From: an uncultured Ruminococcus sp.
GTDB taxonomy: Bacteria > Bacillota > Clostridia > Oscillospirales > Acutalibacteraceae
Length of the DNA stretch: 64,000 bases
Assembly: GCA_902802795.1 (NCBI GenBank)
Contig: CADCNI010000009.1
Coordinates: forward strand, 1-64,000
Direction of reading: 5' to 3'
The notes under the pieces: generated by a model
What the model was told of the DNA's origin: nothing
Databases searched by the model: none
The model's input: the letters and a program-made list of their open reading frames with translations, nothing else
In this document: one piece after another, positions 5,914 through 53,052 of the stretch
Position numbering within the stretch: position 1 is the stretch's first letter
How the letters are laid out: every line of letters begins with the position of its first letter
Made by a program: the position numbers and the translations under genes

Positions 5914-6049
5914 GTGAAATGTGAAGTTATGTACTAAATGAGCATGACTGTTAAAATGCATTATTCAAATTGGCAACTATGAACATTATAGTCTTAAAAT
6001 GTGCAGCTCGTTCTAATGAAATTTCACATTTCACATTTCACACTTCACA
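5914..6049. repeat. Inverted pair of heptamer arrays after prmA
   Basis: Two GTGAAAT/GTGAAGT-type heptamers at 5914-5927 are followed about 95 bp later by four reverse-complement heptamers (TTTCACA x3, CTTCACA) at 6022-6049. Together they could fold as a hairpin. The sequence between is AT-rich and shows no gene. Confidence 0.8.
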
Positions 6050-6100
6050 TTAAAATAAATTCTCAATTTTATAAAATATTAAACCAAACAGTTGTTCGAT

Positions 6101-6119
6101 TGACATTTGGTGAATGTCA
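6101..6119 (+). promoter_or_regulatory. Operator-like palindrome before the XRE gene
   Basis: TGACATT-TGGTG-AATGTCA, a perfect 7-bp inverted repeat with a 5-bp centre. It ends over a weak -35 region (TGTCAT, 6115-6120), 18 bp before TATAAT (6139-6144). This position fits self-repression by the XRE protein encoded next (inference). Confidence 0.6.
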
Positions 6120-6177
6120 TAAATTTCCCGATACCCGTTATAATGATAATAGGAATAATGCGTTAAGGGGGGTTTAT

Positions 6178-6462
6178 ATGTTCAACAACAGGTCCTCGGA
6201 CGGACGAAACAACGTGTGCGGCAAAAATATTGCCGCGCTGCGCAAGCAGTAGGGAATTTCCCAGCGGGAATTGGCCGGGCGGCTGCAACTGATGGGTTAC
6301 GACATGGACAAAAATGCCGTTCAGCGGATTGAGTCGGGACAGCGATTTGTTACCGATATTGAGGTGGAAGCATTTGCGAAGGTGTTCGGCGTCAGTCTGC
6401 CCATGTTGTTCCGGGAGGATATTTCCCCGGAAAATCTTTTCGGAGAAAATGATACCGAGTAA
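6178..6462 (+). pseudogene. XRE-family HTH regulator broken by one in-frame TAG
   Basis: The start ATG at 6178 follows AAGGGGGG. The frame reads NIAALRKQ, then TAG (6250-6252), then GISQRELAGRLQLMGYDMDK and a typical XRE helix-turn-helix ending in FGVSLPMLF, to a natural stop at 6462 (about 94 residues if read through). The premature stop falls where relatives usually have Lys (RKQKGISQ), consistent with AAG to TAG. The DNA-binding helices lie after the stop, so the 24-residue first piece would be inactive. Re-initiation at the ATG at 6271 or later would lose the first helix. An operator-like palindrome precedes the gene. Confidence 0.8.
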
Positions 6463-6540
6463 TGACCCGATGTTGCTTTTGTCTTTTCATGCTGTTATTG
6501 TCATTTTGAAAATGATTCTTTAAAAAACTGAACAAAAGAA

Positions 6541-6581
6541 AAGCCGCACTGCCTGCAAAAATTGGTTGACAGTGCGGCTTT
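6541..6581. terminator. Bidirectional terminator hairpin
   Basis: AAGCCGCACTG and CAGTGCGGCTT form an 11-bp stem. Read on the minus strand it is followed by a T-rich run, serving the Nudix gene; on the plus strand it follows the XRE gene. Confidence 0.7.
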
Positions 6582-6678
6582 GCGCATATATAATTGAATT
6601 ACGCTGTTTTTTATTCAAATAACCGATGGATGATCTGACGAAAAAATTGTCAGAACAAATGATCGGTGATCTTCTGTT

Positions 6679-7416
6679 TTAAAACAGATGCTCGGTGATC
6701 CAGGATTTGGCCTGTGAGAGAACCTTTTTATCGTTGTTGAAGCGGAAGGTTTTTACGGCGAGACTGTAATCCGCCCAGATGAACCGTTCGATTTCAGATG
6801 GCTGAATGACCACATCTTCTTCGGGCATTTCCGCTAAAAAGAAGATGACTTGTTTGGTGATCTTACCCTTAGGGTGATATTCGCTGATAGTGCGGAACCC
6901 GTCTTTGAGATGGACGCTGAGTCCGGTTTCCTCTTTGACCTCGCGCACGGCGGTCTGGCGTTCGTTCTCGTGGACCTCCATATGCCCCTTGGGAAAGCCC
7001 CAGTTGTTGCCCTTGCGGTTTTTGATCAGCAGATACTCGACATTGCCGCTGTGACGGCGAAAGATGACCGCGCCGCAGGACTTTTCATACAGGCAGGTGA
7101 TGCGCGCCGAGGAAAGATCGAGCGAGCCGCCCAGCACTTCACGAATGACAGGAGCATAAAGAATGGCAGCTTCACCGCAGCATATGTAGTAAATCTTACC
7201 GTGCAGTTCGGTGACAGCCATCACCTTGACGCGGACGACGGGATGCGTGAGGGGAGCGTCGGGACTGAAAACCAGAATGTTGCGCAGGGTGTGTGCGTCG
7301 CAAGTTCTGTCGTCGTCGGTAGCAATGCCGGTATGAACGACGTAATGTCTGCCGTCATAGCAGCCGTGATATGACTTGTCAAAATTAATTTTCACATTGA
7401 TAATATTGCCAAGCAA
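6679..7416 (-). CDS. Nudix hydrolase with an N-terminal extra domain
   Basis: 245 residues. The C-terminal half (from about residue 110) is a Nudix domain with a perfect Nudix box: Gly144, Glu150 and REVKEETGL at 158-166. The flanking GNNWGFPKGHMEVHE and the Glu-rich tail resemble the Ap4A hydrolase/MutT-like branch, so a nucleoside diphosphate-linked substrate is likely. Residues 1-105 form a separate domain of the sort MLGNIINVKINFDKSYHGCY. It weakly recalls the start of Clostridia pyrophosphatase-like proteins, but the resemblance is only a guess. TTG at 7416 is chosen because GGAGG lies 7 nt upstream and no in-frame ATG is near. The upstream minus-strand sequence has TTGTAA, 16 bp, TAAAAT. 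Confidence 0.8.
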   Translation of the reverse strand: MLGNIINVKINFDKSYHGCYDGRHYVVHTGIATDDDRTCDAHTLRNILVFSPDAPLTHPVVRVKVMAVTELHGKIYYICCGEAAILYAPVIREVLGGSLDLSSARITCLYEKSCGAVIFRRHSGNVEYLLIKNRKGNNWGFPKGHMEVHENERQTAVREVKEETGLSVHLKDGFRTISEYHPKGKITKQVIFFLAEMPEEDVVIQPSEIERFIWADYSLAVKTFRFNNDKKVLSQAKSWITEHLF

Positions 7417-7585
7417 AACATGACCTCCGTTCTATGTATTCGTTATATTCGCAATAATTCTATTTTACTACATTTAACGGAAATTACAATATGGCTTTTG
7501 TATATTTTTTAATTATTTCTCAATTTGTTTTTTATTTTTCCGTTTTTCGGGAAATATAATAGATTTATCAGGAGGAATTTTCACT

Positions 7586-8413
7586 ATGTTACAGGTTTCT
7601 TGGAGTGCGCTTATGGCATTGCTGCTGCTGCTCGTCATATGTTTTGTGCTGCCGCTGGGATTGTTCGGCGCGTTGTTCAAACTGGCGGACGGCAGATGGA
7701 AGACATGCGGCATCGGAGCGGGTGCGTATTTTGTAGGCGGTTTTGTGGCGGATGTGCTGTTGCTGACCGGCATTCGGGCTGTAACCGACATGAATCAGAA
7801 TATGCCGGTCTATATGCTCTATTCGCTGCTGCTTTCCCCTGCCATTTTCATGGCGGTCAATTATTTTGCCATGAAGAAGCTGGGCAAGGATGAACTGAAC
7901 AACACGGGAGATGCGCTGATGTATTCCGTGGGATATGCGGGGCTGCAAAATATGGTCACGACGGGATTTGTCGCGGCGATGTATTTTGTAACGCTCTGGA
8001 GCATCAAGTCGAACGGCGGCAGTTATGTGGTGGTGAGCGAATCGGATTATGTCAGCTACAGTAATCTGGTGAGCGCGTCCAATCTGATTACCGACAGCAT
8101 TTACGCACAGATGCAGGAGCTTTGTTCCCGTCCCGCGACTTATTTCCTGTCGCTTTGCATGGACAGGCTGTGGGTGATTGTGGTATATGCCGCGCTGCTG
8201 CTGGTGGTATGGCTGGCGGTCAAAAAGACCAACAAACTGCCGCTGCTGGGCATTGCCTTTGTCATGCGCCTGTTGATCGGACTGCCGACTATTTTCAGTG
8301 ATTTCCATGTGTTTTCCAGTTCATGGATGGCTACGGCAATGGTTGTGGTAATCTCGGTTGTCGTGTGGGTGGCGGCGGTTTTCTGCTGGAAGCTCTTTAT
8401 TGATGAAGATTAA
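7586..8413 (+). CDS. YhfC-like multipass membrane protein
   Basis: 275 residues with about seven to eight hydrophobic helices. The opening (LLLVICFVLPLGLFGALFKL, then GAYFVGGFVADVLLL) and helix spacing recall the YhfC family, some members of which are classed as putative intramembrane metalloproteases. The Glu/His-rich helix expected for a protease is not seen: the corresponding stretch reads MYSVGYAGLQNMVTTGF. If it belongs to the family it is probably not catalytic. AGGAGG lies before the ATG and TATAAT at 7555-7560. The gene is monocistronic and ends at a heptamer array. Confidence 0.5.
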   Translation: MLQVSWSALMALLLLLVICFVLPLGLFGALFKLADGRWKTCGIGAGAYFVGGFVADVLLLTGIRAVTDMNQNMPVYMLYSLLLSPAIFMAVNYFAMKKLGKDELNNTGDALMYSVGYAGLQNMVTTGFVAAMYFVTLWSIKSNGGSYVVVSESDYVSYSNLVSASNLITDSIYAQMQELCSRPATYFLSLCMDRLWVIVVYAALLLVVWLAVKKTNKLPLLGIAFVMRLLIGLPTIFSDFHVFSSSWMATAMVVVISVVVWVAAVFCWKLFIDED

Positions 8414-8415: not shown

Positions 8416-8450
8416 TAATGCATAATGCGTAATGCGTAATGCGTAATGCA
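8416..8450 (+). repeat. Heptamer array, five units
   Basis: TAATGCA, three TAATGCG, TAATGCA in perfect 7-bp register, starting right after the stop codon of the YhfC-like gene. Confidence 0.95.
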
Positions 8451-13043: not shown

Positions 13044-13443
13044 AAATGAAAATTTAGTGGGGAGTGGGGAGTGGAAAGTGGGAAGTGGGGAGAAAAAGAA
13101 AAAAAGAAGAAAAGCGAAGCGTAACTAGCGAGCGTATGCGAGCGTGGGAGTCCAGGGGGGTAGGCCCTCCTGGCGGGTCAAGGGCAGAGCCCTTGCGGGA
13201 GAGTGAGGGCAGGGCCCTCACAAGCGCCGCAAACGGCGCGAGCAAGACGCGCTTGGATTTGCAGCGGGGTTGGGCGAATACAAGGAGTTTACCTATCCGT
13301 ATTCGCCCAACTGCCTTCTTGATCGCGGCTCGTTCCGCTCGGTCGGCTAAAGCCTCCCTTGTGTGGCGCTGCCCCACTCCCCGCAATTTTTTCTTTTTCT
13401 CTCCCCACTCCCCACTTCCCACTCCCCGCTAAATTCTCATTTA
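13044..13443. repeat. Long palindromic repeat element, copy 1
   Basis: About 400 bp between two convergent genes. The ends are AAATGAAAATTTAG and CTAAATTCTCATTT, each next to heptamer runs of GGGGAGT type (13059-13093) or the reverse (13402-13430). Inside are a GC-rich arm (GCGAGCGTATGCGAGCG) and a central hairpin with arms of the type GTTGGGCGAATAC / GTATTCGCCCAAC. Much of the right arm has been lost. It is open in several frames, but there is no ribosome binding site or homology to suggest a gene. Confidence 0.85.
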
Positions 13444-15025: not shown

Positions 15026-15838
15026 ATGAGCAATTATTTTGAAGCGGTGACAGGAAAGTTTATGGAAAATCTCAGCGCGTTCCGGGTGGTATCGACCGAC
15101 AGCGAAGGCGGGCATGAAAGCGTGGTGCTGACCGACGGTTCCGTCAATGCCAAGATCGTCTATTCGCCCGACGTCAAGCGGTTTTTCCTTTTCAAAGGTG
15201 TTGCGGACTGTGCCGACGACGGTTTTGAACAGATGCAGAGCTTCTTTTTTGAGCCGTCGGGCGACGAGGGCGCCGATTTGCGTGACGCCGCGTCGGTAGC
15301 CAATGAATTTTCTGAGACTTTCGCGGGTGTGGATGCAATGGCGCCCAATATCCCGGCGGCTTCCCGCAAGCTGAGCAAGAAGGAACGGGAGAGCGACGAG
15401 AATTCCGCCGTCTACTTTGCCAACCGCATTCCCGCCGTGCTGCCCGAATGCCGTGAACCGCTGCTCCAGCACAAGGCGCATTATGGCATGTTGCTGCCCA
15501 ACAAGTTCTGCGATGAAGTTGTCAACGCGGCAGTGGTAAAAATGCTTGACGACAAAACCCGCAAAAAGAACGCGGAAGAATTCTTCGCGCTTCTTGATAA
15601 AATGTATGCGACAGGCGATATGGACGTCAAGAGCATCATCACCATGACCATTCTCAACCGCATCACGGGAGAGGAACGTATCGAATATGTGGAAGGTCTT
15701 CTTTCGGACGGTACCAGAAAGGCGTGGAAATCGGCGCGTCGCTTTATCGGCAAAAAGGTCAAGCCCGAAAAGGAGAGCAAATATCAGCAGTTTTCTCAGA
15801 AATACCGTTCCCAGCTTATGGACAACGTCGATCAATAA
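15026..15838 (+). CDS. Hypothetical soluble protein (270 aa)
   Basis: Not recognised. It has no signal peptide or membrane segment. It begins MSNYFEAVTGKFMENLSAFR, with a beta-rich first part to about residue 80. The remainder is helical, with charged stretches (SRKLSKKERESDEN and ARRFIGKKVKPEKESKYQQF). GGAGG lies 14 nt before the ATG, longer than usual, but no closer start exists. The gene has two promoters and is followed by a membrane-protein gene 88 bp later. Confidence 0.6.
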   Translation: MSNYFEAVTGKFMENLSAFRVVSTDSEGGHESVVLTDGSVNAKIVYSPDVKRFFLFKGVADCADDGFEQMQSFFFEPSGDEGADLRDAASVANEFSETFAGVDAMAPNIPAASRKLSKKERESDENSAVYFANRIPAVLPECREPLLQHKAHYGMLLPNKFCDEVVNAAVVKMLDDKTRKKNAEEFFALLDKMYATGDMDVKSIITMTILNRITGEERIEYVEGLLSDGTRKAWKSARRFIGKKVKPEKESKYQQFSQKYRSQLMDNVDQ

Positions 15839-15926
15839 TTCTTCACATAAAGAGGCGCGATTGTTCATAGGGCTTAATACGGTAAAACAGCCTTTCACCT
15901 GAACTTCACAGAAGGGAGCTATTGCC

Positions 15927-17738
15927 ATGAACAACAATGTCAACGGTTATCCAACCAACGGGGGGAATGATCCCCGGATTCCTTCCTACCCGAATCAGCC
16001 CAACGCACAGGGCGCGCAGCCGCCGGTTTATACGCAGCAGCAGCCTGTTTACCAGCAGCCGCCCGTCTATCAGCCGCCCAACTATTACGCGCAGTATGCC
16101 CCGGTTGTGCAGCAGGGCGTTTCCGGCGGCGGTTATGTCATGCAAAAGCCGGATTACGCGGTGGCGGCGGAAAATACGCTTGGGTCGATGAATATCGGAC
16201 TTCTGACCGTGTTCTCCATCCTTTTCGGGTGGTTCTGCGCACGTTCGGTGTGGATCGGGCAGACAGGCATCGGCATGACAGTGATGGGGGCGGCGTTTTA
16301 TCTGATTTACCTGCCTTTCATTATGTTCAGACAAAAGAAGAAGGTGTCGCTTGGGGCGGCGCTGCTCTTCCTGCCGCAGATTGTGCTTCTGGGGTCGTTT
16401 GCGGTGTGGTCGAATCCTTTGCCGAAAGCCATCGGCCTGCTGCTTTCGCTCGCCATTGCCATGGTGCAGACCACTTTGATCGCGGGCTGCACGGCGGGCA
16501 AGCCTTTCTCCTATGAACTGCTGGCCGACGCCTGTTCCACCTTTATCGCCTATCCGTTTATGAATCTGGTGACCACTTTCAAAACGGTGCTGGGGCTGAA
16601 TAAGGACAAATCCGCCAAAAAAGGCGGCACGGGTTCCAAAATCGGTCTGGGTCTGGTGCTGCTGCTTCTGATTATTCTGTTTGCCCACGCGGACAGTATG
16701 TTTGCCATGTGGATTGACAGGATTGTCAAGGTGCTCAATATTAACCTGTGGCGCGTTCTTCTCGACGTGATTCTCATCATGATTACCATGCTGTATGTCA
16801 TGCCGCTGGTGGTTACGCTGCGCAGCGGCTATCATAAGGAATATGAGCATAAAGATTACAACCGCCCGATTGACGCGATTATCATCACTACGGTGCTGTT
16901 TGCCGCGAGTGTGGTGTATCTGGTCTTTGTCGCGGTGCAGTTCCGCTATCTTTTCATCGGCGTGCCGAAGGAACTGACCTACGCGGAATACTGCCGCAGA
17001 GGATTCGGTGAACTGGTGTTTGTCATCGTGCTGACAACCGCTGTGATCATTACCGTGTGTCTGCTCACCAAGCAGAACGAAAGCGGGCGCCTGCCGGCTT
17101 ACACCAAAGCCGCGCTGCTGCTCATTTCCGCCTGCGACTGCGTGATGATCGTTTCGGCCGCCCGCCGTGTGGTGATTTACGTGGACGGCTACGGCATGAC
17201 CGTGGCGCGTTTCAATGCCGCAGTGCTGATTCTCCTGATGGCGGCCTGTGTGGTGATTACCGCGCTCAAGATTCTCTTTGAAAAGCTGAAAGTCTCCGCG
17301 ATGGCGGGAGCGGTTCTGGTTGTAGTGCTGACCGGCTATGCCTGCTTCAATATGGACGGTTTTATCGCGCAGTACAACGTCAACCGTTATCTCAATCACC
17401 CCACAGAGAAGAAAATCGACATGAATTATCTCACTTATGACCTGTCAACGGGCGCCATTCCCGCACTTGAACAGCTTATGGAGGAAGCCCCCGACAGCAA
17501 AGTGAGACTACACGCCAAATATGCCATTGCGATGATTGCGGATAACAATGACCTTTTCGTAGGCGATGAATATCACATCGGCCGCTGGTCATGGGACCGT
17601 CAGCGTGCGGTAGATATTCTCGAAGCGCACAACATCACCGAAAAGACGGTGGACGAATACTATCGGTCGGATAGATATTACTACGACTATGACGATGAAG
17701 ATGATTACGAGGAAGAAGATACCGTATCGCAGCTGTAA
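15927..17738 (+). CDS. DUF4173/DUF4153-type multipass membrane protein
   Basis: 603 residues. The first 75 are a Pro/Gln/Tyr-rich cytosolic tail (PPVYTQQQPVYQQPPVYQPP). About eleven hydrophobic helices follow. The stretch YAEYCRRGFGELVFVIVLTT matches the conserved core of the DUF4173 family. After the last helix comes a C-terminal domain (DMNYLTYDLSTGAIPALEQL) with helical repeats, and an acidic Tyr/Asp tail (YYYDYDDEDDYEEED). The family's function is unknown. GAAGGGAG precedes the ATG and a strong terminator follows. Confidence 0.75.
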   Translation: MNNNVNGYPTNGGNDPRIPSYPNQPNAQGAQPPVYTQQQPVYQQPPVYQPPNYYAQYAPVVQQGVSGGGYVMQKPDYAVAAENTLGSMNIGLLTVFSILFGWFCARSVWIGQTGIGMTVMGAAFYLIYLPFIMFRQKKKVSLGAALLFLPQIVLLGSFAVWSNPLPKAIGLLLSLAIAMVQTTLIAGCTAGKPFSYELLADACSTFIAYPFMNLVTTFKTVLGLNKDKSAKKGGTGSKIGLGLVLLLLIILFAHADSMFAMWIDRIVKVLNINLWRVLLDVILIMITMLYVMPLVVTLRSGYHKEYEHKDYNRPIDAIIITTVLFAASVVYLVFVAVQFRYLFIGVPKELTYAEYCRRGFGELVFVIVLTTAVIITVCLLTKQNESGRLPAYTKAALLLISACDCVMIVSAARRVVIYVDGYGMTVARFNAAVLILLMAACVVITALKILFEKLKVSAMAGAVLVVVLTGYACFNMDGFIAQYNVNRYLNHPTEKKIDMNYLTYDLSTGAIPALEQLMEEAPDSKVRLHAKYAIAMIADNNDLFVGDEYHIGRWSWDRQRAVDILEAHNITEKTVDEYYRSDRYYYDYDDEDDYEEEDTVSQL

Positions 17739-20432: not shown

Positions 20433-20929
20433 GGCGATTGTAAAGGCAAATGAAAATTTAGTGGAGAGTGGGAAGTGGGGAGTGGAGAGAAAAAAGAAGA
20501 AAAAGCGAAGCGTAACTAGCGAGCGTATGCGAGCGCGGGAGTCCAGGGGGACTGGTCCTCCTCGCGGGTGCAGGGCAGCGCCCTGCTGGGGAGTGGGGCA
20601 AAGCCCCACGAGTGAGGCGAAGCCGAACGAGCAGAACGAGCCTCGATCAAGAAGGCAGTTGGGCGAATACGGATAGGCAAACTCCCTGTATTCGCCCAGC
20701 CCCGTCTTAGGTCTTGGCGCGTGTTGCTCGCGCCGTTTGCGGCGCTTGTGGGGCTTTGCCCCACTCCCTGTTAGCTTCGCTGACGTGCGCTGTCCTTGAC
20801 CCGCTAGGGAGCCTTGCCCGAGATGACGCTTGTCGTCATCGGCTGGACTCCCACGCTCGCATACGCTCGCTAGTTGCGCTTCGCTTTTTCTTCTTTTTTT
20901 CTTTTTCTCCCCACTAAATTCTCATTTAA
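20433..20929. repeat. Long palindromic repeat element, copy 2
   Basis: It starts GGCGATTGTAAAG, then AAATGAAAATTTAGTGGAGA with heptamers (GGAGAGT, GGGAAGT, GGGGAGT). Left arm, inner hairpin (GGGCGAATACGG..CTGTATTCGCCCA) and right arm (GACTCCCACGCTCGCATACG) follow, ending in ACTAAATTCTCATTTAAA. It abuts the stop codon of the zinc-ribbon protein gene at 20931. Confidence 0.88.
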
Positions 20930-20930
20930 A

Positions 20931-23097: not shown

Positions 23098-23170
23098 GAG
23101 ATATCAGTGATATCGGTGATATCGGGATATCGAGATATCGGGATATCGGGATATCGGGATATCGGTGATA
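23098..23170 (+). repeat. GATATCGG short tandem repeat array
   Basis: Eight units of mostly 8 bp (GATATCGG, with 9-bp variants at the left) between the PAP2 gene and the HD-GYP gene, ending about 20 bp before the latter's ribosome binding site. A weaker 9-bp version of the same word is at 36419-36453. Confidence 0.9.
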
Positions 23171-23202: not shown

Positions 23203-24462
23203 ATGGCTAAAATCAGATTTGGCGTGGAGGAGGATGTGCAGTTGTCTGCACGTTCCAGCAGAGTAAAAAGGCAGCTTCACAATATAGGTCTTGGCATCAG
23301 CATCGTCATGGTGATTACTACGCTGGTGCTGCTGGGCAATGCCGCTTACAAGGCTTTTCTTGCCAACGGCGATTTTGTCAGTGGCACCGTCGATTACAAG
23401 ACGATGAGCAACATCAACCAGATTATCGCTTCTGTACTTCTTATGCTGGTCACATCTATGTCGGCGCTTGTTTTTTACCGTCTTTACAAGGCAAAGTCTC
23501 CGTTTTCGCGCGGCAATATTGTGATCCTCCGCGTGGTGGCGCTCATTTTGATGCTGCTTTCCATTTTGCCCATTGCTGTGCAGTTGCTGGTGGCGAGTTT
23601 TTATAATCTCAATATCGGCATTTCCATCAACTTCATTTACATTTTTATCGGCGTCATCTTTTATTGCATTTCTTACATGTTCGAGCAGGGCAATATCATC
23701 CAGAGCACCAACACGGAATCCGTGTCGCTTCGCGAAGATCTGCTCCTCAGCTATGCCGAAATGGCCGAAGCCAAGTCGGGACAGACAGGACAGCATGTCA
23801 AGCGCATTTCGGAATACACCCGCATTCTCGCCAAGAATTACGGCATGTCCGATGAGGAAGTGGAACGGCTCCGTCTGGCGGCCATGTTCCATAATATCGG
23901 AAAGGTCATGATTCCGATTGAAATTCTCGACAAGGAAAGCACGCTTTCCAACGAGGATTTCGCCATCATGAAAACCCATGTCGTTGCCGGTGAACAGCTT
24001 CTGCACAACGCTACGGATCCTATCTTGCAGGAAGCGCGCAAAATGGCGATGGATCATCACGAAAACTGGAACGGTCACGGCTACCTCGGCAAGCAGGGAG
24101 AGGAAATCAGCCTTCCCGCACGTATTGTGGCGGTGGCGGATATGTTTGACGCGCTCATCAGTTCCCGCAGCTATAAGACGGGCTGGGAACCCAACAAGGT
24201 TTATTCCACCATCATCGACGAAAGCGGTAAGAAACTGGATCCCAATGTTGTCAAAGTGTTTATCACCAGCTACAGAGAGATGCTGAAGATTTACAACACC
24301 TACAACAAGACCGGTTCCAGAGAGCACGAACTTGCCAAGGAAACAGAGGAAGGCTATGACAAGATTCTCGGCGAATTCAGGAAAAAGCCTGACGAAGCCG
24401 AGGTGGAAAAGATCGAAAAGAATTATCAGGATGTCGAGCTTGACCTGCGCAGACTCATTTAA
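23203..24462 (+). CDS. HD-GYP-like membrane protein with altered active site
   Basis: 419 residues. Helices at about 28-50, 72-94, 108-133 and 138-160 anchor the protein; a cytosolic domain follows from about 180. That domain has the HD-GYP layout: GQHVKRISEYTRILA, AAMFHNIGKVMIP, HHENWNGHGY and LPARIVAVADMFDAL. The metal-binding HD pair of HDIGK is HN here (His230, Asn231), and GYP is GYL. HD-GYP enzymes break down cyclic di-GMP; this one may be inactive or altered. AAAGGTG precedes the ATG. Confidence 0.82.
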   Translation: MAKIRFGVEEDVQLSARSSRVKRQLHNIGLGISIVMVITTLVLLGNAAYKAFLANGDFVSGTVDYKTMSNINQIIASVLLMLVTSMSALVFYRLYKAKSPFSRGNIVILRVVALILMLLSILPIAVQLLVASFYNLNIGISINFIYIFIGVIFYCISYMFEQGNIIQSTNTESVSLREDLLLSYAEMAEAKSGQTGQHVKRISEYTRILAKNYGMSDEEVERLRLAAMFHNIGKVMIPIEILDKESTLSNEDFAIMKTHVVAGEQLLHNATDPILQEARKMAMDHHENWNGHGYLGKQGEEISLPARIVAVADMFDALISSRSYKTGWEPNKVYSTIIDESGKKLDPNVVKVFITSYREMLKIYNTYNKTGSREHELAKETEEGYDKILGEFRKKPDEAEVEKIEKNYQDVELDLRRLI

Positions 24463-24464
24463 AC

Positions 24465-24513
24465 GTGAAATGTGAAGTGTGAAATGTGAAGTGTGAAATG
24501 TGAAATGTGAAGC
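24465..24513 (+). repeat. Heptamer array, seven units
   Basis: GTGAAAT and GTGAAGT alternate for seven 7-bp units, beginning three bases after the HD-GYP stop codon. A reverse-complement remnant (ACTTCACACTTCACACT) at about 24651-24667 lies across the terminator, next to CAAGTGCGAAGCGCTTC. Confidence 0.95.
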
Positions 24514-24560
24514 GTGGTACCGCACTTTGCATATGCATGATAAAAAACAATAAATAAAAA

Positions 24561-24612
24561 TCAAACAGCCGAAAGATTTTTGAACACTGGTTCTCATCTT
24601 TCGGCTGTTTGA
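24561..24612. terminator. Bidirectional terminator between convergent genes
   Basis: A perfect 17-bp stem (TCAAACAGCCGAAAGAT / ATCTTTCGGCTGTTTGA) with T-rich flanks in both directions. Confidence 0.9.
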
Positions 24613-24668
24613 TTTATCGTTTTATTTTCCAAGTGCGAAGCGCTTCTTTCACTTCACACTTCACACTG

Positions 24669-26583: not shown

Positions 26584-26663
26584 CCCCGAACCGCCATTTT
26601 CTGCGTTCTCCGCATAAATCATGGAGGTTCGGGGCCACAATAAAGTCAATATGCACAAAAAGC

Positions 26664-26712
26664 GGTTAGCAATTAGCCGTTAGCGGTTTCACACTTCGCA
26701 TTTCACATTTCA
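26664..26712. repeat. Heptamer array overlapping the end of a gene
   Basis: Seven 7-bp units: GGTTAGC, AATTAGC, CGTTAGC, GGTTTCA, CACTTCG, CATTTCA, CATTTCA. They encode the last residues of the PLC-like protein on the minus strand. Confidence 0.85.
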
Positions 26713-28628: not shown

Positions 28629-28643
28629 AGGCGGCCTCCTTTT

Positions 28644-28805
28644 TATAGCAATCCAAACAAACAAAAAGACAAGTTCGGCGCGCTGGTGAGCACATGGCTG
28701 CGTTGTCGTCCTAGGTGGGCGCCAGCCCACCGTCGTCCCCTCCGCCTTGCCCTGCACTCACCATCATCGCCTCCTTTTGTCTCCCTGATTATTTGGATTG
28801 CTATA
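28644..28805 (-). mobile_element. MITE-like element, copy 3 (full length, 162 bp)
   Basis: It has complete ends TATAGCAATCCAAA and TTTGGATTGCTATA. Between them are the two unlike halves and the central palindrome GGTGGGCGCCAGCCCACC. It is the only copy showing both halves in full. It encodes no protein of its own, and mobilisation in trans by an IS630-like transposase is suggested by the TA flanks (inference). Confidence 0.9.
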
Positions 28806-28933
28806 GTGTGAAATGTGAAGTGTGAAATTATACGGTGATTGCTTGCGTCTATTTCAGCGCGAAGCGCTCCTTCATTATTCTCTATTCGTTATTCACCATT
28901 CTCTATTCTCTTAGCGCAGCTCCGCTGCGCGCT
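28806..28933. repeat. Heptamer arrays between MITE and carboxypeptidase gene
   Basis: GTGAAAT/GTGAAGT/GTGAAAT (about 28808-28828) follows the MITE. Six heptamers of CTCTATT type (CATTATT, CTCTATT, CGTTATT, CACCATT, CTCTATT, CTCTTAG) at 28873-28914 follow AGCGCGAAGCGCTCC. The same GCGCGAAGCGCTTCC plus TCTAT-type heptamers occur at 49740-49797. Confidence 0.85.
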
Positions 28934-34045: not shown

Positions 34046-34130
34046 AGTGGTCAGTGGTTAGTGATTAGTGGTCAAAGTGGGGAGTGGGAATTGTGAACAT
34101 TATTCACTGTCCACTGATCACTGTTCACTG
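34046..34130 (+). repeat. Heptamer array with inverted second half
   Basis: AGTGGTC, AGTGGTT, AGTGATT, AGTGGTC, then a GGGGAGT-type unit, then reverse-complement-like units (CTGTCCA, CTGATCA, CTGTTCA, CTG). It could fold as a hairpin. It starts at the stop of the second M42 gene. Confidence 0.85.
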
Positions 34131-34152
34131 AAAAAAGGGAGGGAAAGCTTGG

Positions 34153-36300: not shown

Positions 36301-36402
36301 CAATCCAAATAATCAGGGAGACAAAAGGAGGCGATGATGGTGAGTGCAGGGCAAGGCGGAGGACGACGGTGGGCTGGCGCCCACCTAGGTTGGATTGCTA
36401 TA
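36296..36402 (+). mobile_element. MITE-like element, copy 4 (short form, 107 bp)
   Basis: Ends TATAGCAATCCAAA and TTGGATTGCTATA. The left half and core palindrome are complete, but the right half is deleted from CCTAGG to the terminal repeat. It provides the stop codon of the HD gene. Confidence 0.9.
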
Positions 36403-39363: not shown

Positions 39364-39900
39364 GCCGATTGTAAAAGTTGAAAAACGGCGGAAATACGGG
39401 GTTTTGCTTATTTTTGAAGCTACGTTTTCTCCGCTAAATGAGAAGTTAGTGGAGAAAAAAGAAAAAGAAGAAAAGCGAAGCGCAACTAGCGAGCGAATGC
39501 GAGCGTGGGAGTCCAGCCGATGACGACAAGCGTCATCTCGGACTAGTTCCTCCTGGCAGGGGCCTGGGGGCGGCGCCACCAGCGGGGAGTGGGGCAGCGC
39601 CCCACAAGCGCCGCAAACGGCGCGAGCAAGACGCGCCAAGACCCAGGACGAAGCTAGGGCGAATACAGGGAGTTTGCCTATCCGCATTCGCCCAATTGCG
39701 ATTTAAATCTAAGCTCGTTCTGCTCGTTCGGCTTCGCCTCACTCGTGGGGCTTTGCCCCACTCCCCACAAGGGCGCTGCCCTTGACCCGCCAGGAGGGCC
39801 TACCCCCCTGGACTCCCACGCTCGCATTCGCTCGCTAGTTGCGCTTCGCTTTTTCTTTTTTGTTATTCTGCTAAATTCTTATTTACTTTTACAATCGCCT
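39364..39900. repeat. Long palindromic repeat element, copy 3 (full ends)
   Basis: The most complete copy, about 537 bp. Terminal inverted repeats are GCCGATTGTAAAAG and CTTTTACAATCGCC. The arms (GCGAAGCGCAACTAGCGAGC on the left, GCTCGCTAGTTGCGCTTCGC on the right) are exact complements over 20 bp and continue complementary in blocks. The centre is the GGGCGAATACAGG..ATTCGCCC hairpin. It lies inside the row of three small minus-strand genes. Heptamers CGTTAGC/GGTTAGC follow it at 39904-39917. Confidence 0.9.
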
Positions 39901-42681: not shown

Positions 42682-44316
42682 TTGGCTTATGAAAATAAAT
42701 CCGACCAAAATGACGAGTATCCTTTTGTTGACACGCTCGACAAGATGGCCAAGTTTGCCCACAAGGACAAAACGGATAAACCGGACAACCCCAGTCTGAC
42801 AGAAAAAAACAGCCGACAGGCGGATGCTCACGCAACCGCCGATCATGAATCCTATAGACAGTATGCACAGAACTATCCTGCCGTCGATCGTCAGAGGGGA
42901 GAGCGTCTACAGGCAGGAAGCGACCGCCGGAAGGGCGATCGTTTTGCGGCAGGAAGCAACCGTCGGAGAGACGAGCGTTTTGCGGCAGAGAGCGAGCCTC
43001 GAAAGGGCGAGCGTTTTGTGGCAGGGAGCGACCGCCGGAGGGACGAGCTTTTTGCGGCAGAGAGCAACCGTCGGAGGGACGAGCGTTTTGCGGCAGGGAG
43101 CGACCGTCGGAGGGACGAGCGTTTTGCGGCAGGAAGCGACCGCCGGAGGGACGAGCGTCTACAGTCAGGAAGCGACCCTCGAAAGGGCGATCGTTTTGCG
43201 GCAGGAAGCGATCGCCGGAGGGACGAGCGTTTTGCGGCAGAGAGCAACCGTCGGAGGGACGAGCGTTTTGCGGCAGAGAGCGACCGTCGGAAGGAGGAGC
43301 GTTTTGCGGCAGAGAGCGACCGCCGGAGGGACGAGCGTTTTGCGGCAGGGAGCGACCGCCGGAGGGACGAGCGTTTTGCGGCAGAGAGCAACCGTCGGAA
43401 GGAGGAGCGTTTTGCGGCAGAAAGCGACCCTCGAAAGGACGATCGTTTTGCGGCAGGAAGCGACCGCCGAGCGGACATTCCCTCCAAAAGCACCCGTAAT
43501 CAAACCTTTGCCGCCGGAATCGCGGCGGCTGAGAGAACAGAAAAACGCAAGGAAAAAGAAACAACCCCCAAGCGGCTTGTGGCGCTGCTGTGTCTGCCGA
43601 TTGTGGCGGTGGTGGTTGTGATAGGCCTGTGGGCGGTGATAGGGCGCCGTTCGCGGAACCAAGGCGTACTGCCGAACGGCAAAAGCGTCAAATATGCCGC
43701 AGTTTCCCCTTCGGACGGTAAAAACGGCGCTGAGAAGGAGACGGCCGTGACCAAAGCGCCGCCGGAATCCGACAAAAGCATGGTGCGTGTGAGGGATTAT
43801 GCCCCTGATATGCGCGTTGATCTGAAATATGCGGGCAAGCGGAATTTTACGGGCAAGCGGATTTATGATTTTGAGGACGCGTATCTGCGTTACGGCACCG
43901 TTAAAAAACTCATTAAGGCGCAAAAGACGCTCAAGGAATACGGTATGGGGCTGATCATCTGGGACGCCTACCGTCCGCACGCGGCGCAGAAGAAGCTGTG
44001 GGAGGTCTGTCCCAATCCCCTTTATGTCAAGGATCCGGACAAGGGCTATTCCGACCACACACGGGGAAGCGCGGTGGACGTCACGCTGGTGGACTCCGAC
44101 GGTACCGAATTGCTCATGCCGACGGGTTTTGATAATTTCACCAAACTGGCTGACCGTGATTACAGCGATATCGACAACGATTTTGCCCGTGACAATGTGA
44201 AACTGCTGGAAAAGACCATGAAGGCCGCAGGATTTCAAGCCTATTTCGAGGAATGGTGGCACTACACCGATTCAGACAGTTATGAAATCGAAAAAAATTT
44301 CGTTCCCGAAAAGTAG
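42682..44316 (+). CDS. VanX-like D-Ala-D-Ala dipeptidase with sixteen 12-residue repeats
   Basis: 544 residues. TTG at 42682 follows AAAGGCGGTGAG. Residues 1-73 are polar; residues 74-265 are sixteen 12-residue repeats with consensus ERFAAGSDRRRD, very rich in Arg, Asp and Glu. A membrane helix (LVALLCLPIVAVVVVIGLWA) places the repeats in the cytosol. The C-terminal domain outside is of the M15D D-alanyl-D-alanine dipeptidase type: IWDAYRPHAAQKKLW, SDHTRGSAVDVTL and EEWWHYTD give the zinc ligands and catalytic Glu. The role is most likely peptidoglycan turnover, not vancomycin resistance, since no other van genes are near. The repeat arm is not a usual part of this family. Confidence 0.85.
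   Translation: MAYENKSDQNDEYPFVDTLDKMAKFAHKDKTDKPDNPSLTEKNSRQADAHATADHESYRQYAQNYPAVDRQRGERLQAGSDRRKGDRFAAGSNRRRDERFAAESEPRKGERFVAGSDRRRDELFAAESNRRRDERFAAGSDRRRDERFAAGSDRRRDERLQSGSDPRKGDRFAAGSDRRRDERFAAESNRRRDERFAAESDRRKEERFAAESDRRRDERFAAGSDRRRDERFAAESNRRKEERFAAESDPRKDDRFAAGSDRRADIPSKSTRNQTFAAGIAAAERTEKRKEKETTPKRLVALLCLPIVAVVVVIGLWAVIGRRSRNQGVLPNGKSVKYAAVSPSDGKNGAEKETAVTKAPPESDKSMVRVRDYAPDMRVDLKYAGKRNFTGKRIYDFEDAYLRYGTVKKLIKAQKTLKEYGMGLIIWDAYRPHAAQKKLWEVCPNPLYVKDPDKGYSDHTRGSAVDVTLVDSDGTELLMPTGFDNFTKLADRDYSDIDNDFARDNVKLLEKTMKAAGFQAYFEEWWHYTDSDSYEIEKNFVPEK
42901..43476 (+). repeat. Sixteen 36-bp in-frame tandem repeats
   Basis: Units of GA(C/G)CGT.. type, each coding for 12 residues, with point differences at Gly/Glu, Asp/Asn and Arg/Lys positions. 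There are no spacers, so this is a protein repeat, not CRISPR. Several other frames also remain open across the tract because the unit length is a multiple of three. Confidence 0.95.
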
Positions 44317-46952: not shown

Positions 46953-47449
46953 GGCGATTGTAAAAGGAAAGATAAATGAAAATTTAGTGGGGAGTGGGAA
47001 GTGGGGAGAAAAAGAAAAAAAGAAGAAAAGCGAAGCGCAATTAGCGAGCGAATGCGAGCGTGGGAGTCCAGGGGGGGAGGCCCTCCTGGCAGGTCAAGGG
47101 CAGCGCATGTCAGCAAAGCTGACAGGGAGTGGGGCAGCGCCACACAAGGGAGGCTTTAGCCGACCGAGCAAGACGCGCTTGGATTTGCAGCGGGGTTGGG
47201 CGAATACGGGGAGGTTACCTATACGAATTCGCCCGACTGCCTTCTCAATCGAGGCTCGTTCCGCTCGTTCGGCTTTGCCTCACTCGTGGGGCTTTGCCCC
47301 ACTCCCCAGCAGGGCGCTGCCCTGCACCCGCGAGGAGGACCAGTCCCCCTCGACTCCCGCGCTCGCATACGCTCGCTAGTTGCGCTTCGCTTTTTCTTCT
47401 TTTTTCTCTCCACTCCCCACTCCCCACTTCCCACTAAATTTTCATTTAC
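46953..47449. repeat. Long palindromic repeat element, copy 4
   Basis: It starts GGCGATTGTAAAAGG, then AAATGAAAATTTAGTGGGGA with heptamers. The inner hairpin is GGGCGAATACGG..CGAATTCGCCC and the right arm ends CACTAAATTTTCATTTAC. The right terminal repeat is missing, and the element runs straight into the DUF6020 gene. Confidence 0.88.
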
Positions 47450-49306
47450 TTTTTCCATCATCTCTTCCGTTGCCGTACTGCGCCGGAAGGCAATCACGGC
47501 TAAAAACGGCAGACAGCAGAAGAGGGAATAGGCGTATCGGAATTCCGAATATACCGGAGTGGCAATGAGCAGGGAAAAAAGAATGGCGATCACAGGCACA
47601 GTCAGAAATACGGTCAGCTTGTCTTTTTTTCGCCAGCCGATATAGGCGGTCAGCAACAGACACCAGGTGTGCAGTCCGATGCTGACAAATGGTTTCAGCC
47701 ACTCGATTTTTTGGAAGTTAGAGGAATAAGTGCGGCAAATGCCGTATAGTGTGTCGGAAGAAATTCTTTTTTTGATTCCCAGGTTATTTTCGCTGACCTG
47801 TATCCACCATAGCGTGTAATCGTACCCGGCGTTCCAATATCCCTTTGTCTGTTCCACCCATGCTTCAAAGTATTGTTTGGGATGGGACAGTCCCAATGTC
47901 ACATACAGTCGGATATATTCCCATTTGTGTGCCGTAAGATATTCCTGATTTCCCTTCGCTCTTACGTTTTCTTTGATGGGGTCGGAAATGTACGCTTTAT
48001 AATCCCGGGGAATCTTTTCTATGTCAGCGACTTTGGCAATCAAATCCTTTTGATTTTCGGTGAGATCGTCACATTGTGCTACCACCCGCGCCATCTGCTG
48101 CGCGGGAATGGACAGGGATTCAATGGTATCCGGCTGCGTGACATCGAGGATTTTCAGGACGGGATGCTTGAGAACCCAGGAAAGAATAAGGATGCTGGCC
48201 AGCAGGATGCAGATTTTGGGATGCTGTTTCCCGTAGAAGCAGGCAAAGACGAGAAAGGTGATGACAAAGGCAAACAACCCGTTGCTTCTGAAAAGACATA
48301 TGCCAAAGGTACTCAGCAATATCAGACCGACAGTCAGATGTCGGCTGCTTCCCACGTTTTCAATCAAGCGAAAGACAGAAACGGTGAAAATCAATACAAA
48401 AGCGCTGAACGGAATATCTTTCCACATGGTAAAGCTGTAAAGGATGTGATAGGGAAGAAGGAGGTAGGCGAGCATTACAACGGTGACAATCTTCATGCTG
48501 ATGTTTAACCGGTACAGCGTGGTGGTGGTGTAGGCAAAGGTGAAGGACATCAGTAGAGTCGAAAAAAAGCTGTAAAGCGCGACTTGCTGGTTAATATTTT
48601 TGAAAAACAGTTTTCCCGTTTCCATACACAAACCAATGACTTCAGTATGATAAAACGGATGATGATTGGAGTAATGACCGGACATGATCTGCTCGATTTG
48701 TTCCATGCTGTCGTGCGTCAATATGCCCGGATAAAAGCATAAAAACAGAATCGAAGAATAAACCGCCGCAAAAAGGCCAAAGGTGACAAGAAAAAGCGAT
48801 GCCGGTTTGGAATCATAATTTCGGGTGGTCCAGACAAAGGGTACGGCTTTCAGCGTGATCCATCTTAGAATGAAATACAGGGTGTACAGTCCGCCCAGAA
48901 AGATGACGATCAGACGGACGGTGCATTCCAAAGCGCCAAACAGACTGATGACAAGAGGACTGGACGCAGCGATTGTCAGATGATTTTCAAATAACGGGTA
49001 ATTGGCGCACATGACGGCAATGGAAAACAAAGCGGCGATCCGGACATTGGGTCTTTCGGAGCGAAAGAAAATTGTTTGCCGGTCGCTGGTGGAAGTAGTG
49101 ACGGCCCGGCGGCAGAAAAGCCCGCCAATGCCGATGATAAGATAAATCACATAATAGGCGTCTGTCTTTGTCAAAAAAAGCAGCCAGCTCAGTATGGTGA
49201 AAATCTGAATGCCGCCGTGTGCGGAGGTGAAGGATTTCCCTAAAAGAAAATGCCGTAGTTTTAAGGAAAGTTGCTCCAAGTGGAGGCGCTGAATGAATTG
49301 TTTCAT
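47219..49306 (-). CDS. DUF6020-type membrane protein with repeat-derived C-terminal tail
   Basis: 695 residues and about thirteen hydrophobic helices. Conserved points are the first outer loop FYPGILTHDSMEQIEQ with YSNHHPFYHT, TMWKDIPFSAFVL, and a final YSEFRYAYSLFCCLPFL. These fit DUF6020, thought to be GT-C-like membrane glycosyltransferases; the function is not established. AGGAG precedes the ATG. Family sequence ends near FRRSTATEEMMEK. The last 76 residues (from position 47449 down) are a translation of palindromic repeat copy 4, basic at first (VERKKKKKR), and replace the natural stop. Confidence 0.75.
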   Translation of the reverse strand: MKQFIQRLHLEQLSLKLRHFLLGKSFTSAHGGIQIFTILSWLLFLTKTDAYYVIYLIIGIGGLFCRRAVTTSTSDRQTIFFRSERPNVRIAALFSIAVMCANYPLFENHLTIAASSPLVISLFGALECTVRLIVIFLGGLYTLYFILRWITLKAVPFVWTTRNYDSKPASLFLVTFGLFAAVYSSILFLCFYPGILTHDSMEQIEQIMSGHYSNHHPFYHTEVIGLCMETGKLFFKNINQQVALYSFFSTLLMSFTFAYTTTTLYRLNISMKIVTVVMLAYLLLPYHILYSFTMWKDIPFSAFVLIFTVSVFRLIENVGSSRHLTVGLILLSTFGICLFRSNGLFAFVITFLVFACFYGKQHPKICILLASILILSWVLKHPVLKILDVTQPDTIESLSIPAQQMARVVAQCDDLTENQKDLIAKVADIEKIPRDYKAYISDPIKENVRAKGNQEYLTAHKWEYIRLYVTLGLSHPKQYFEAWVEQTKGYWNAGYDYTLWWIQVSENNLGIKKRISSDTLYGICRTYSSNFQKIEWLKPFVSIGLHTWCLLLTAYIGWRKKDKLTVFLTVPVIAILFSLLIATPVYSEFRYAYSLFCCLPFLAVIAFRRSTATEEMMEKVNENLVGSGEWGVERKKKKKRSATSERMRARESRGTGPPRGCRAAPCWGVGQSPTSEAKPNERNEPRLRRQSGEFV

Positions 49307-49697: not shown

Positions 49698-49755
49698 GGA
49701 TAGTCTCCTTTGGCTGGTGATTGCCTTTTTATATTCCAAGCGCGAAGCGCTTCCT

Positions 49756-49797
49756 TATCTATTATCTATTATCTATTTTTTATTCTCTATTCTCTTA
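49756..49797. repeat. Heptamer array, six units
   Basis: TATCTAT three times, TTTTTAT, TCTCTAT, TCTCTTA. It is preceded by GCGCGAAGCGCTTCC and ends at the folP stop, exactly as the array at 28873-28914 ends next to the carboxypeptidase stop. Confidence 0.9.
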
Positions 49798-50652
49798 GCG
49801 AGTCTTTTTCCCAGGCGAGCGCATCAACGCGTCCGCTACCTGCGCCGCCTGTACGGCTTCAGGAACGTCATGCACGCGGAGAATGTGTGCGCCGCCGAGG
49901 AGGCAGGCGGTGTGATAGGCAACGGTGCCGCTGACGCGCTGCTCCGCCGGCGGATTGCCGCAGGACATGCCGATCACGCGCTTGCGGGAAGCGGCGGCCA
50001 GCATGGGGTAGCCCTTTATGCACTGCTGCTCGAACGAAGCGGCGATTTGCAGGTTTTGCTCATAGCTTTTGCCGAAGCCCACGCCGGGGTCGAAGCAGAG
50101 ATTCCGCGCGGGAATCCCGTCCGCGACGCAGACGTTGGACATGATGAGGTAGAAGCGGCGCAGCGCCTGACAGACATCCGCGTCCTCTTTGAGCTGGGAA
50201 CTGTGCATGACCACGCAGCCGGTCTGAAACTGCACGGCGACGCAGCGCATGGAATAATGGCGGAACCCGCTCACGTCATTGAGAATCTGAACCCCCATCG
50301 CGGCGGCTTTGCCTGCCACTTCGGGAAAATAGGTGTCCACCGACAGCACCGCATGGAAGTCGCGGCTCCCCGTCAGCTCGGAAAGCACGGGCTGAATGCG
50401 TTGCCATTCCTCGTCGGGAGAGATGGGGGTATGTCCCGGACGGGTAGACTGCCCGCCGATGTCGATGATGTCCGCGCCCTGCGCTGCCATTTCATAGGCG
50501 CGTGCAACGGCGGCGTCCACATGGGCGTACTTTCCCCCGTCGGAGAAAGAGTCGGGGGTGACGTTGAGAATCCCCATGATGTAGGTGCGGTCGAGCGTGA
50601 GCACCTTGCCGCCGCCGATGTGCCATTCCACAATCGGTCTGGGGGCGATCAT
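49795..50652 (-). CDS. folP: Dihydropteroate synthase
   Basis: 285 residues. DHPS joins p-aminobenzoate to the pterin pyrophosphate in folate synthesis and is the sulfonamide target. Motifs: [56 protein letters not shown] and [12 protein letters not shown] at 50652 overlaps the folE stop (ATGA), so the two are translationally coupled. A longer frame upstream is only a shadow of folE. The usual folB/folK genes are not nearby. Confidence 0.95.
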
Positions 50653-52401: not shown

Positions 52402-52423
52402 GGGAATGACCTTCCTTTTCATT

Positions 52424-52465
52424 ATATATAATACAGTTAATTGGATATATAATACAGTTAATTGG
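52424..52465. repeat. Perfect 21-bp tandem duplication in the degV leader
   Basis: Two exact copies of ATATATAATACAGTTAATTGG lie between the promoter (52488-52516) and the ribosome binding site of the DegV gene. They do not belong to the heptamer class, although 21 is three times seven. Confidence 0.95.
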
Positions 52466-52487
52466 TAGCTCCCTTTTTCTTATTCCT

Positions 52488-52516
52488 ATTATAGCAAATC
52501 GTTTTGACAACTGCAA
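52488..52516 (-). promoter_or_regulatory. Promoter of the DegV gene
   Basis: TTGCAG (52511-52516), 17 bp, TATAAT (52488-52493) on the minus strand. Confidence 0.75.
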
Positions 52517-52566
52517 GACCTTGTAAAAAAAATAGGCCGTCGTCATCCAAAAATTTTCCCGCCATA

Positions 52567-52595
52567 TTGCAGTTACGGAAAAAATATGCTAAAAT
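52567..52595 (+). promoter_or_regulatory. Promoter of the DUF2752 gene
   Basis: TTGCAG (52567-52572), 17 bp, TAAAAT (52590-52595). Confidence 0.65.
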
Positions 52596-52639
52596 GAAAA
52601 TAAAGCTGTGTGAACCGGACGGGAAAGGCGGCGGCGACG

Positions 52640-53020
52640 ATGGAACAGCATTCACAAAAGAACGAGTGGCGGCAGGTCATTCTCTTGCATCTGGCGCTGC
52701 TTCTGGGAACAGCCCTCTGGGTGGCGGTCGCGCTGGGGTTTCGCATCTACTGCCCCATCCGCCATGTCACGGGCATTCCCTGTCCCGGCTGCGGCATGTC
52801 GCGGGCGCTGGTGAGCCTGCTGCGGCTGAACTGGCAGGGATACTGGCACAACAATCCCGCCGCGCTCCCCTGTCTGACGGCGGTGTTCGTCCTCGTCAAC
52901 CGCGAAACCGTCCTGCTGCGGCGGCTGCCGATGTGGCTGAAGGACGGTCTGATCGGCGTGGGGTTCGGTCTGACGCTGCTGACGTATCTCGTGCGGCTGA
53001 TCTGGTTCGACATACCGTGA
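52640..53020 (+). CDS. DUF2752 membrane protein
   Basis: About 126 residues with three membrane segments. The DUF2752 signature PCPGCGMSRALVSLLRLNWQ is followed by GYWHNNPAALPCLTAVF. The Cys pair in PCPGCG is the mark of the family, whose function is unknown. ATG at 52640 is used; GGCGGCGG upstream is a fair ribosome binding site, and GTG at 52610 is possible but close to the transcript start. Confidence 0.85.
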   Translation: MEQHSQKNEWRQVILLHLALLLGTALWVAVALGFRIYCPIRHVTGIPCPGCGMSRALVSLLRLNWQGYWHNNPAALPCLTAVFVLVNRETVLLRRLPMWLKDGLIGVGFGLTLLTYLVRLIWFDIP

Positions 53021-53024
53021 GAAT

Positions 53025-53052
53025 GGGTAATGGGTAATGGGTAATGCGTAAT
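53025..53052 (+). repeat. Heptamer array, four units
   Basis: GGGTAAT three times then GCGTAAT, five bases after the DUF2752 stop codon. The words match the TAATGCG array at 8416-8450. Confidence 0.95.

What the first reader, a model, noticed from the sequence alone, without database searches (positions are those of the whole stretch)
5914..53052. Many unrelated 7-bp tandem arrays between genes (STRR-like)
At least ten intergenic arrays keep a strict 7-bp period although the unit differs. Examples: TAATGCG at 8416-8450, GTGAAAT/GTGAAGT at 24465-24513, GGTTAGC..CATTTCA at 26664-26712, CTCTATT at 28873-28914, AGTGGTC at 34046-34130, TATCTAT at 49756-49797, GGGTAAT at 53025-53052, and GGGGAGT at the ends of the long palindromic elements. 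Most start within a few bases of a stop codon, and several have a reverse-complement partner nearby. An 8-bp word (GATATCGG, 23098-23170) is related. Heptanucleotide STRR repeats are known from heterocystous cyanobacteria; I know of no description in Clostridia. A single mechanism that fixes the period but not the sequence would be new.
Basis: partly seen in the sequence, partly recalled or inferred. Interest (0 to 1): 0.8.

Follow-up and report, generated by a model that had tools for sequence, protein, structure and literature searches.

The report
Polar heptamer repeat arrays beside genes
A clostridial bacterium carries many short arrays of 7-letter DNA repeats that mostly sit right after gene ends and nearly always face the same way; such arrays are already known from other bacteria, but their fixed length and direction remain unexplained.

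Summary
In 862,714 bp of the window's genome there are 49 tandem arrays of period 7, against 0-4 at periods 4-6, 8, 10, 11, 13, 14 and 16 (15, 9 and 7 at the codon-like periods 9, 12, 15); close relative G003 has 49 in 1.30 Mb. The units are not unrelated: they sort into seven families, with in-phase mosaics. Nor is the class new: heptamer repeats with this placement are published for Xanthomonas and Nostoc, others for Beggiatoaceae and Geobacter, and a polymerase reason for 7 dates from 2007. Added here: (1) polarity: the defined strand points away from the nearest gene edge in 41 of 45 (own) and 35 of 43 (G003) arrays; within 30 nt of a stop codon 52 of 52; single arrays too (42 of 48). (2) AGTG heptamer arrays of many phyla show it (48 of 63); period-8 arrays do not at stop codons (8 of 17 against 33 of 38). 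(3) Between relatives, arrays keep their site but change unit number, variant, even family; one enclosed segment is inverted. Slippage plus copying between sites is the best explanation; the polarity is unexplained.

The parts
5914..5927 (+). two GTGAART units, partner of 6021-6051
   Evidence: sequence, context
6021..6051 (-). GTGAART array, one of 4 polarity exceptions among 45 own-genome arrays
8416..8449 (+). TAATGCG array, 2 nt after the stop of 7613-8413
13056..13092 (+). AGTGGGG/AGTGGGA array, left end of a palindromic element
13401..13427 (-). AGTGGGG array, right end of the same element
20467..20485 (+). AGTGGGA array, left end of another copy of the palindromic element
24461..24511 (+). 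GTGAART array, 7 units, 2 nt after the stop of 23203-24462; by eye 4 units in G003, 3 in G017
24512..24649 (.). segment with a terminator-like hairpin (by eye), enclosed by inverted arrays; inverted in G003 relative to G000 and G017
24650..24667 (-). GTGAART array, 1 nt from the stop of the minus-strand gene 24669-26489; by eye 4-5 units in G003, about 1.5 in G017
26661..26688 (+). GTTAGCN array; by eye 14 units in G003, 7-8 in G017
26687..26712 (-). GTGAART array; at this site G017 has an AGTGGTT-family array (family switch)
28807..28828 (+). GTGAART array next to a TA-inserted MITE-like element
28871..28911 (-). AATAR (CTCTATT) array between GCGAAGCGC and AGCG-rich words (by eye), like the repeat at 49726-49802
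34046..34074 (+). AGTGGTC/AGTGGTT/AGTGATT array, directly after the stop at 34044
34104..34131 (-). inverted partner of 34046-34074
46986..47008 (+). AGTGGGG array, left end of a palindromic element
47406..47435 (-). AGTGGGG array, right end of the same element
49755..49795 (-). AATAR (TATCTAT) array ending at the stop of the minus-strand gene 49795-50652; by eye same unit number but other variants in G017, contracted in G003
53022..53052 (+). AATGGGT array, 1 nt after the stop at 53020; in G003 same length and phase, other units
23098..23170 (+). 8-mer GATATCGG array, judged NOT a member (local expansion)

Best explanation
These belong to the bacterial class of intergenic heptamer simple-sequence repeats. 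Inferred mechanism: an array lengthens and shortens by 7-nt units through replication slippage or misaligned recombination. New arrays and new unit variants come by copying from arrays elsewhere in the same genome (recombination or template switching), which keeps the phase and spreads a few unit families over many sites. Recombination between inward-facing arrays can flip or delete what lies between them. Selection confines the arrays to non-coding DNA up to the stop codon or the ribosome-binding region. Shown: the period excess, few families per genome, in-phase mosaics, same-site change of number, variant and family, one inverted segment, and a strict polarity at gene ends. Inferred: slippage, copying between sites, recombination as the cause of the inversion, and any reason for the step of 7. 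Not explained: why the polarity holds for single arrays.
For: Period excess in two genomes and in loci of many phyla: among arrays not selected by the search pattern, p7 = 85 against 10 or fewer at any other period. Finding one p7 array predicts more p7 arrays nearby (204 against at most 20 at any other period); p8 and p6 seeds do not behave so (p8 seeds: 33 p8, 26 p7; p6 seeds: 19 p6, 3 p7). The 49 own and 49 G003 arrays all sort into seven families, unlikely if each arose anew from local sequence. Same site: 11 of 17 array-bearing intergenic regions with a G003 ortholog have a detected array there too. By eye, lengths differ by 7, 7, 14 and 161 bp at L669:19292, L662:14123, L660:6142 and L664:11095. 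Expansion and family switch at 26661, in-place variant change at 53022 and 49755, inversion at 24476-24667 (minus-strand 170 against plus-strand 113 bits).
Against: An automated count found only 3 of 7 in-array gaps of 5 nt or more to be multiples of 7, against 7 of 49 elsewhere, a weak difference; by eye L673:9203 differs by 15 bp. Slippage alone predicts neither the polarity (52 of 52 near stops) nor mosaics of many unit variants. No enzyme was identified. The inversion rests on one locus (1 of 17 array-bearing regions; 0 of 188 without a detected own array). Whether a site gained or lost units or inserts could not be told, for lack of an outgroup with alignable intergenic DNA. The family patterns are permissive: one match to a pattern is enough.
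Confidence: 0.55

Rival explanations
1. The polarity is a selection filter only: arrays touching a gene end survive if they carry a sense stop codon, and arrays before a start survive if they bring no false starts.
For: 46 of 46 arrays within 15 nt of a stop codon have a stop in the sense strand (15 of 46 on the other strand), against 10 of 20 farther from a 3' edge (Fisher p 9e-7). At 5' edges p8 arrays point the same way (14 of 17 within 30 nt; p7 17 of 22).
Against: GTTAGCN arrays have stops on both strands (14 of 14) yet point outward 10 of 10 times near stops. At 53022 and 24465 the array begins after a stop codon that printed array-less relatives have at the same codon, so it did not need to supply one. 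In other phyla non-seed arrays show no stop enrichment on the outward strand (25 of 58, against 34 of 58 on the other).
Confidence: 0.3
2. The arrays are the ends of mobile elements (MITE- or REP-like), and outward polarity is that of terminal inverted repeats.
For: AGTGGGG arrays flank palindromic elements with many copies. In the own-genome contexts printed the inverted pairs that I looked at face inward. An element lies within a GCTAAC array at L048:5744 that is uninterrupted in G003.
Against: Single arrays keep the polarity (42 of 48). The 24465 pair encloses what looks like the genes' own terminator. The transposase family Y1_Tnp is in 1 of 18 genus genomes and not in the other array-rich ones. 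Some pairs join different families (26661/26687, L046 10137, L046 15560/16373). In G003 the pair L052 6555/6767 faces outward.
Confidence: 0.12
3. The arrays are binding sites for a regulator, as proposed for TAACTGA repeats and the Geobacter heptamers.
For: Fixed position near gene edges and few unit families per genome.
Against: The nearest gene edge is mostly a 3' end (33 of 45 own, 33 of 43 G003). Unit variants and number are not conserved between close relatives.
Confidence: 0.08
4. A dedicated or intrinsic polar synthesis process adds 7-nt units to the strand that leaves the gene.
For: Same 7-nt step and outward polarity in loci of many phyla; polarity at stop codons is seen for p7 (33 of 38) and not p8 (8 of 17) (Fisher p 0.005); single arrays obey it.
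Against: No candidate enzyme: the only RVT_1 match in the genome is one 635-aa ORF that I take by eye to be of group II intron type. Units are shared between sites, which points to copying. The p8 comparison does not control for stop codons in the units.
Confidence: 0.1

Closest known systems
G-rich heptamer repeats GGGNATC / GGGGA(C/T)T of Xanthomonas and Nostoc (Rehm et al. 2015, PMC4692102)
   Same: [quoted passage not shown]).
   Different: There one quadruplex-forming G-rich unit dominates; here seven families, and only 3 of 49 own and 1 of 49 G003 arrays have four tracts of GGG, so quadruplex formation cannot be the general reason for the placement.
TAACTGA repeats of marine Beggiatoaceae (MacGregor 2015, PMC4679880)
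   Same: Abundant intergenic heptamer arrays, patchy between relatives, indels mostly in 7-nt steps between two Cyanothece strains (seen: abstract, introduction, section 10).
   Different: In the Guaymas strain those lie mostly upstream of starts in forward orientation; here mostly after stops, and in reverse orientation before starts. TAACTGA is not among the 49 unit types tabulated.
Heptamer elements of Geobacter metallireducens (Gmet_H4, consensus GGACCGG; class 3, MTYCTGA) (PMC2700814)
   Same: Multicopy tandem heptamers, four or five units, class 3 drawn as strand-switching pairs (passages only).
   Different: Gmet_H4 is also found within genes; described there as putative regulatory elements.
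STRR sequences of heterocystous cyanobacteria
   Same: Heptanucleotide tandem arrays; AGTGGGG units also found here in cyanobacterial loci.
   Different: The STRR literature is recalled, not read; two library searches found none.

Membership tests
Bacterial intergenic heptamer SSRs (Mrazek 2007 / Rehm 2015 class) | Excess of period 7 over neighbouring periods | tested here: met
   49 against 0-4 at p4-6, 8, 10, 11, 13, 14, 16 (own); AGTG seeds p7 in 28, p8 in 5, p6 in 6 of 299 phylum genomes
Bacterial intergenic heptamer SSRs (Mrazek 2007 / Rehm 2015 class) | Mostly non-coding | tested here: met
   45 of 49 own, 48 of 49 G003
Bacterial intergenic heptamer SSRs (Mrazek 2007 / Rehm 2015 class) | Near ORF edge, coding strand after stop, non-coding strand before start | tested here: met
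Bacterial intergenic heptamer SSRs (Mrazek 2007 / Rehm 2015 class) | Same site, varying length and sequence in relatives | tested here: met
Bacterial intergenic heptamer SSRs (Mrazek 2007 / Rehm 2015 class) | Preference for four units per array | not tested
   no unit-number histogram was made
Quadruplex-forming G-rich heptamers | At least four G-tracts of 3 or more in the array | tested here: not met
   3 of 49 own and 1 of 49 G003 arrays have four; any GGG tract in 10 of 49 and 2 of 49
TAACTGA repeats | Unit TAACTGA | tested here: not met
   absent, in any rotation or strand, from the 49 unit types
REP elements with RAYT | Y1_Tnp gene in array-bearing genomes | tested here: not met
   only G000 of 18; G003, G005, G014, G016 and G017 have no match
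Invertible segments (invertons) | Orientation switching within a strain by a recombinase | not testable with these tools
   one inverted orthologous segment between genomes only; no reads available

The most novel reading that the evidence does not exclude
Bacteria of most phyla share a polar process with a 7-nt step that lays down tandem units of almost any sequence on the strand running out of a gene into the intergenic DNA; the period and direction are set by an unidentified polymerase or repair activity, and this genus shows it with several unit families at once.
Probability: 0.13. Interest if true: 0.9.

Novelty: new variant of a known kind. Interest (0 to 1): 0.6.

Why it matters
Why bacterial satellites prefer 7 nt has been open since 2007. 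The data here turn it into a testable problem: a genus with array-rich and array-poor species, a polarity that holds for every family near stop codons and for single arrays, a period-8 control that fails near stop codons, and same-site changes of unit family. They also show that quadruplex formation cannot be the general reason for the placement. In practice, a terminator-like segment between inverted arrays is flipped in one case and present or absent in another between close relatives, which may alter the insulation of neighbouring genes.

Tried and rejected
Rejected: chance (0 arrays at every period in the Markov controls); assembly artefact (G003, G017 and loci of many phyla show the same); RAYT/REP; a retroelement source (one RT ORF); stop-codon enrichment as a universal rule; GATATCGG as a member. 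Small early genus sample (about 384 kb of G003, G006, G007, G014): polarity 3 of 7, against the reading; the larger G003 sample gave 35 of 43. In that early sample G014 and G007 had no p7 array at the threshold and G006 one. The first inversion script printed nothing because its condition excluded even the known case; one search replaced it; one search also flagged 39436-39514, an end of a palindromic element, not followed up. The own and G003 sets share orthologous sites, so their counts are not independent. The canonical strand was defined from window units; without the window the own count is 35 of 38. Gene calls are from my own hexamer model or, for other phyla, longest ORFs, which adds noise.
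Full report
WHAT IS THERE. Tandem Repeats Finder and an exact-run count both show period-7 arrays at the stated coordinates. The window is G000:C9, in a 2.82-Mb, 99-contig genome; an S10 leader in it matches the Rfam family S10-Clostridia. I took 40 further stretches (with the window 862,714 bp, 31 per cent) and 65 stretches (1.30 Mb) of the close relative G003. With one detector for all periods, p7 gives 49 arrays in each genome. Other periods not divisible by 3 give 0-4 (own) and 0-7 (G003, the 7 being p14); the codon-like periods 9, 12 and 15 give 15, 9, 7 (own; 4, 4, 2 non-coding) and 15, 14, 4 (G003; 7, 2, 0 non-coding).

UNITS. By permissive patterns written from window units, the 49 own arrays sort into seven families: GTGAART 16, AGTGRGR 8, AGTGRYY 8, GTTAGCN 6, AATAR 6, TAATKCG 4, TAATGGG 1; the 49 of G003 into four: GTGAART 20, AATAR 16, GTTAGCN 8, TAATKCG 5. 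Set in the phase that gives most A at position 1 and T at position 3 (so biased by choice), 472 units of both genomes give 49 types, mostly A-R-T/C-N-N-N-N. Mixed arrays change family without losing phase (L042 12984, L046 13624, 15560, 16373). 'Unrelated' is therefore too strong for this genome. In loci of other phyla quite different units stand side by side at period 7, so across bacteria the period is more constant than the sequence.

POLARITY. With hexamer-trained gene calls the defined strand points away from the nearest gene edge in 41 of 45 own arrays (of 49; 1 inside an ORF and 3 without a flanking gene dropped) and 35 of 43 G003 arrays (of 49; 6 dropped). Within 30 nt of a stop codon it is 52 of 52 in the two genomes together, in every family. 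Arrays nearest a 3' edge start a median 2 and 3 nt from the stop. Arrays with an inverted partner in the same intergenic region (34 of 40) and without one (42 of 48) obey alike, so this is not merely the geometry of terminal inverted repeats. All 46 arrays within 15 nt of a stop contain a sense stop codon, against 10 of 20 farther off: selection may play a part. But GTTAGCN, with stops on both strands in 14 of 14 arrays, is also 10 of 10 outward near stops. An early small sample of four genus members gave 3 of 7, against the rule. The two genomes share orthologous sites, so the counts are not independent.

OTHER BACTERIA. In their 610 kb, arrays not chosen by the pattern number 85 at p7 against 10 or fewer at any other period. 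The AGTG strand points outward in 48 of 63 (of 86; 23 dropped), near stops 30 of 35. A second set, 80 loci from viral contigs, gives 58 of 76 (of 109; 33 dropped), near stops 33 of 38. The same procedure with period-8 seeds gives 28 of 44 overall, 8 of 17 near stops and 14 of 17 near starts; period-6 seeds give 9 of 18, with 1 of 2 near stops. So the 3' polarity looks special to heptamers (Fisher p 0.005 against p8) and the 5' polarity does not. Of 299 genomes of the phylum, 28 have AGTG arrays of p7, 5 of p8, 6 of p6. Against generality: 58 non-seed arrays of these loci show G over C (112 to 65) on the outward strand but no stop-codon enrichment and no significant purine majority (32 of 58).

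RELATIVES. The GTGAAR pattern occurs in 7 of 18 genus genomes (own included; one with a single hit) and in none of 22 others of the family and order. Eight more distant genus members printed for the 53022 site and eight for 24465 show no array there by eye. In G003 and G017 the arrays sit at the same sites but differ: 7/4/3 units at 24465; same length but other units at 53022 in G003; other variants or contraction at 49755; 14 GTTAGC units in G003 and a different right-hand family in G017 at 26661. Of 551 intergenic regions, 205 have a G003 ortholog; 17 of these carry a detected array in the own genome, 11 of them in G003 too; 7 of the 188 others have a detected array only in G003, some because the own array is below threshold. 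Lengths differ by 7, 7, 14 and 161 bp at four sites by eye, by 15 at another; the automated count was weaker (3 of 7 gaps multiples of 7). At L046:7484 the own genome has 20 bp where G003 has 198 bp with two inward arrays around a hairpin-like segment; which is older is unknown. The segment between the inverted arrays at 24465-24667 is inverted in G003; 1 of 17 array-bearing and 0 of 188 other regions scored as inverted.

COMPARISON AND MECHANISM. The layout equals that published for Xanthomonas and Nostoc, where the 5' neighbour is nearer whatever the ORF direction (PMC4692102, sections 13, 14, 16 read), and heptamer families are known from Beggiatoaceae (PMC4679880, abstract and two sections) and Geobacter (PMC2700814, passages). 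So this is a variant of a known class. Added here are several families at once, few of them able to form quadruplexes (four GGG tracts in 3 of 49 own and 1 of 49 G003 arrays); the rule shown for single arrays and in many phyla with a period control; and family switching and inversion. I hold slippage in 7-nt steps plus copying among sites, with selection at gene edges, as most likely (0.55); the 3' polarity is left over and is the reason for the interest score.

Noticed in passing
window 28641-28805, 36296-36389, 4789-4882, 5-102: MITE-like elements; the first two have ends TATAGCAATCC..GGATTGCTATA and precise empty sites with a single TA in G003.
   Followed up: partly
window 13046-13430, 20439-20915, 39436-39880, 46968-47455: About 400-480-bp palindromic elements; a query around one copy gave 104 matches in the genome.
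   Followed up: partly
L046 about 15660-16200: CRISPR-like array (repeat GTCTCACTACACCCC..AGGGGTCTAAAAC, by eye) lying between inward-facing heptamer arrays.
   Followed up: no
L048:5744-6183: Element with ends like CACTATCCACAACTTA and CTCCCTC-rich inside, with a nested TA-MITE, within a heptamer array that is uninterrupted in G003.
   Followed up: partly
window 23098-23170: Octamer GATATCGG array, a local expansion absent from G003 and G017.
   Followed up: yes
window 42682-44316: ORF with a 36-bp coding repeat, about 15 copies.
   Followed up: no
genus-wide, e.g. window 49726-49802: Repeat of form GCGAAGCGC + CTATTCT heptamers + TTAGCGAGCG, matched in most genus genomes in the part of the list shown.
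   Followed up: partly
L662:14123, L673:9203, L047:7334: Genes whose stop codon lies inside or touches the first heptamer units, so the array may shape the protein's last residues.
   Followed up: no
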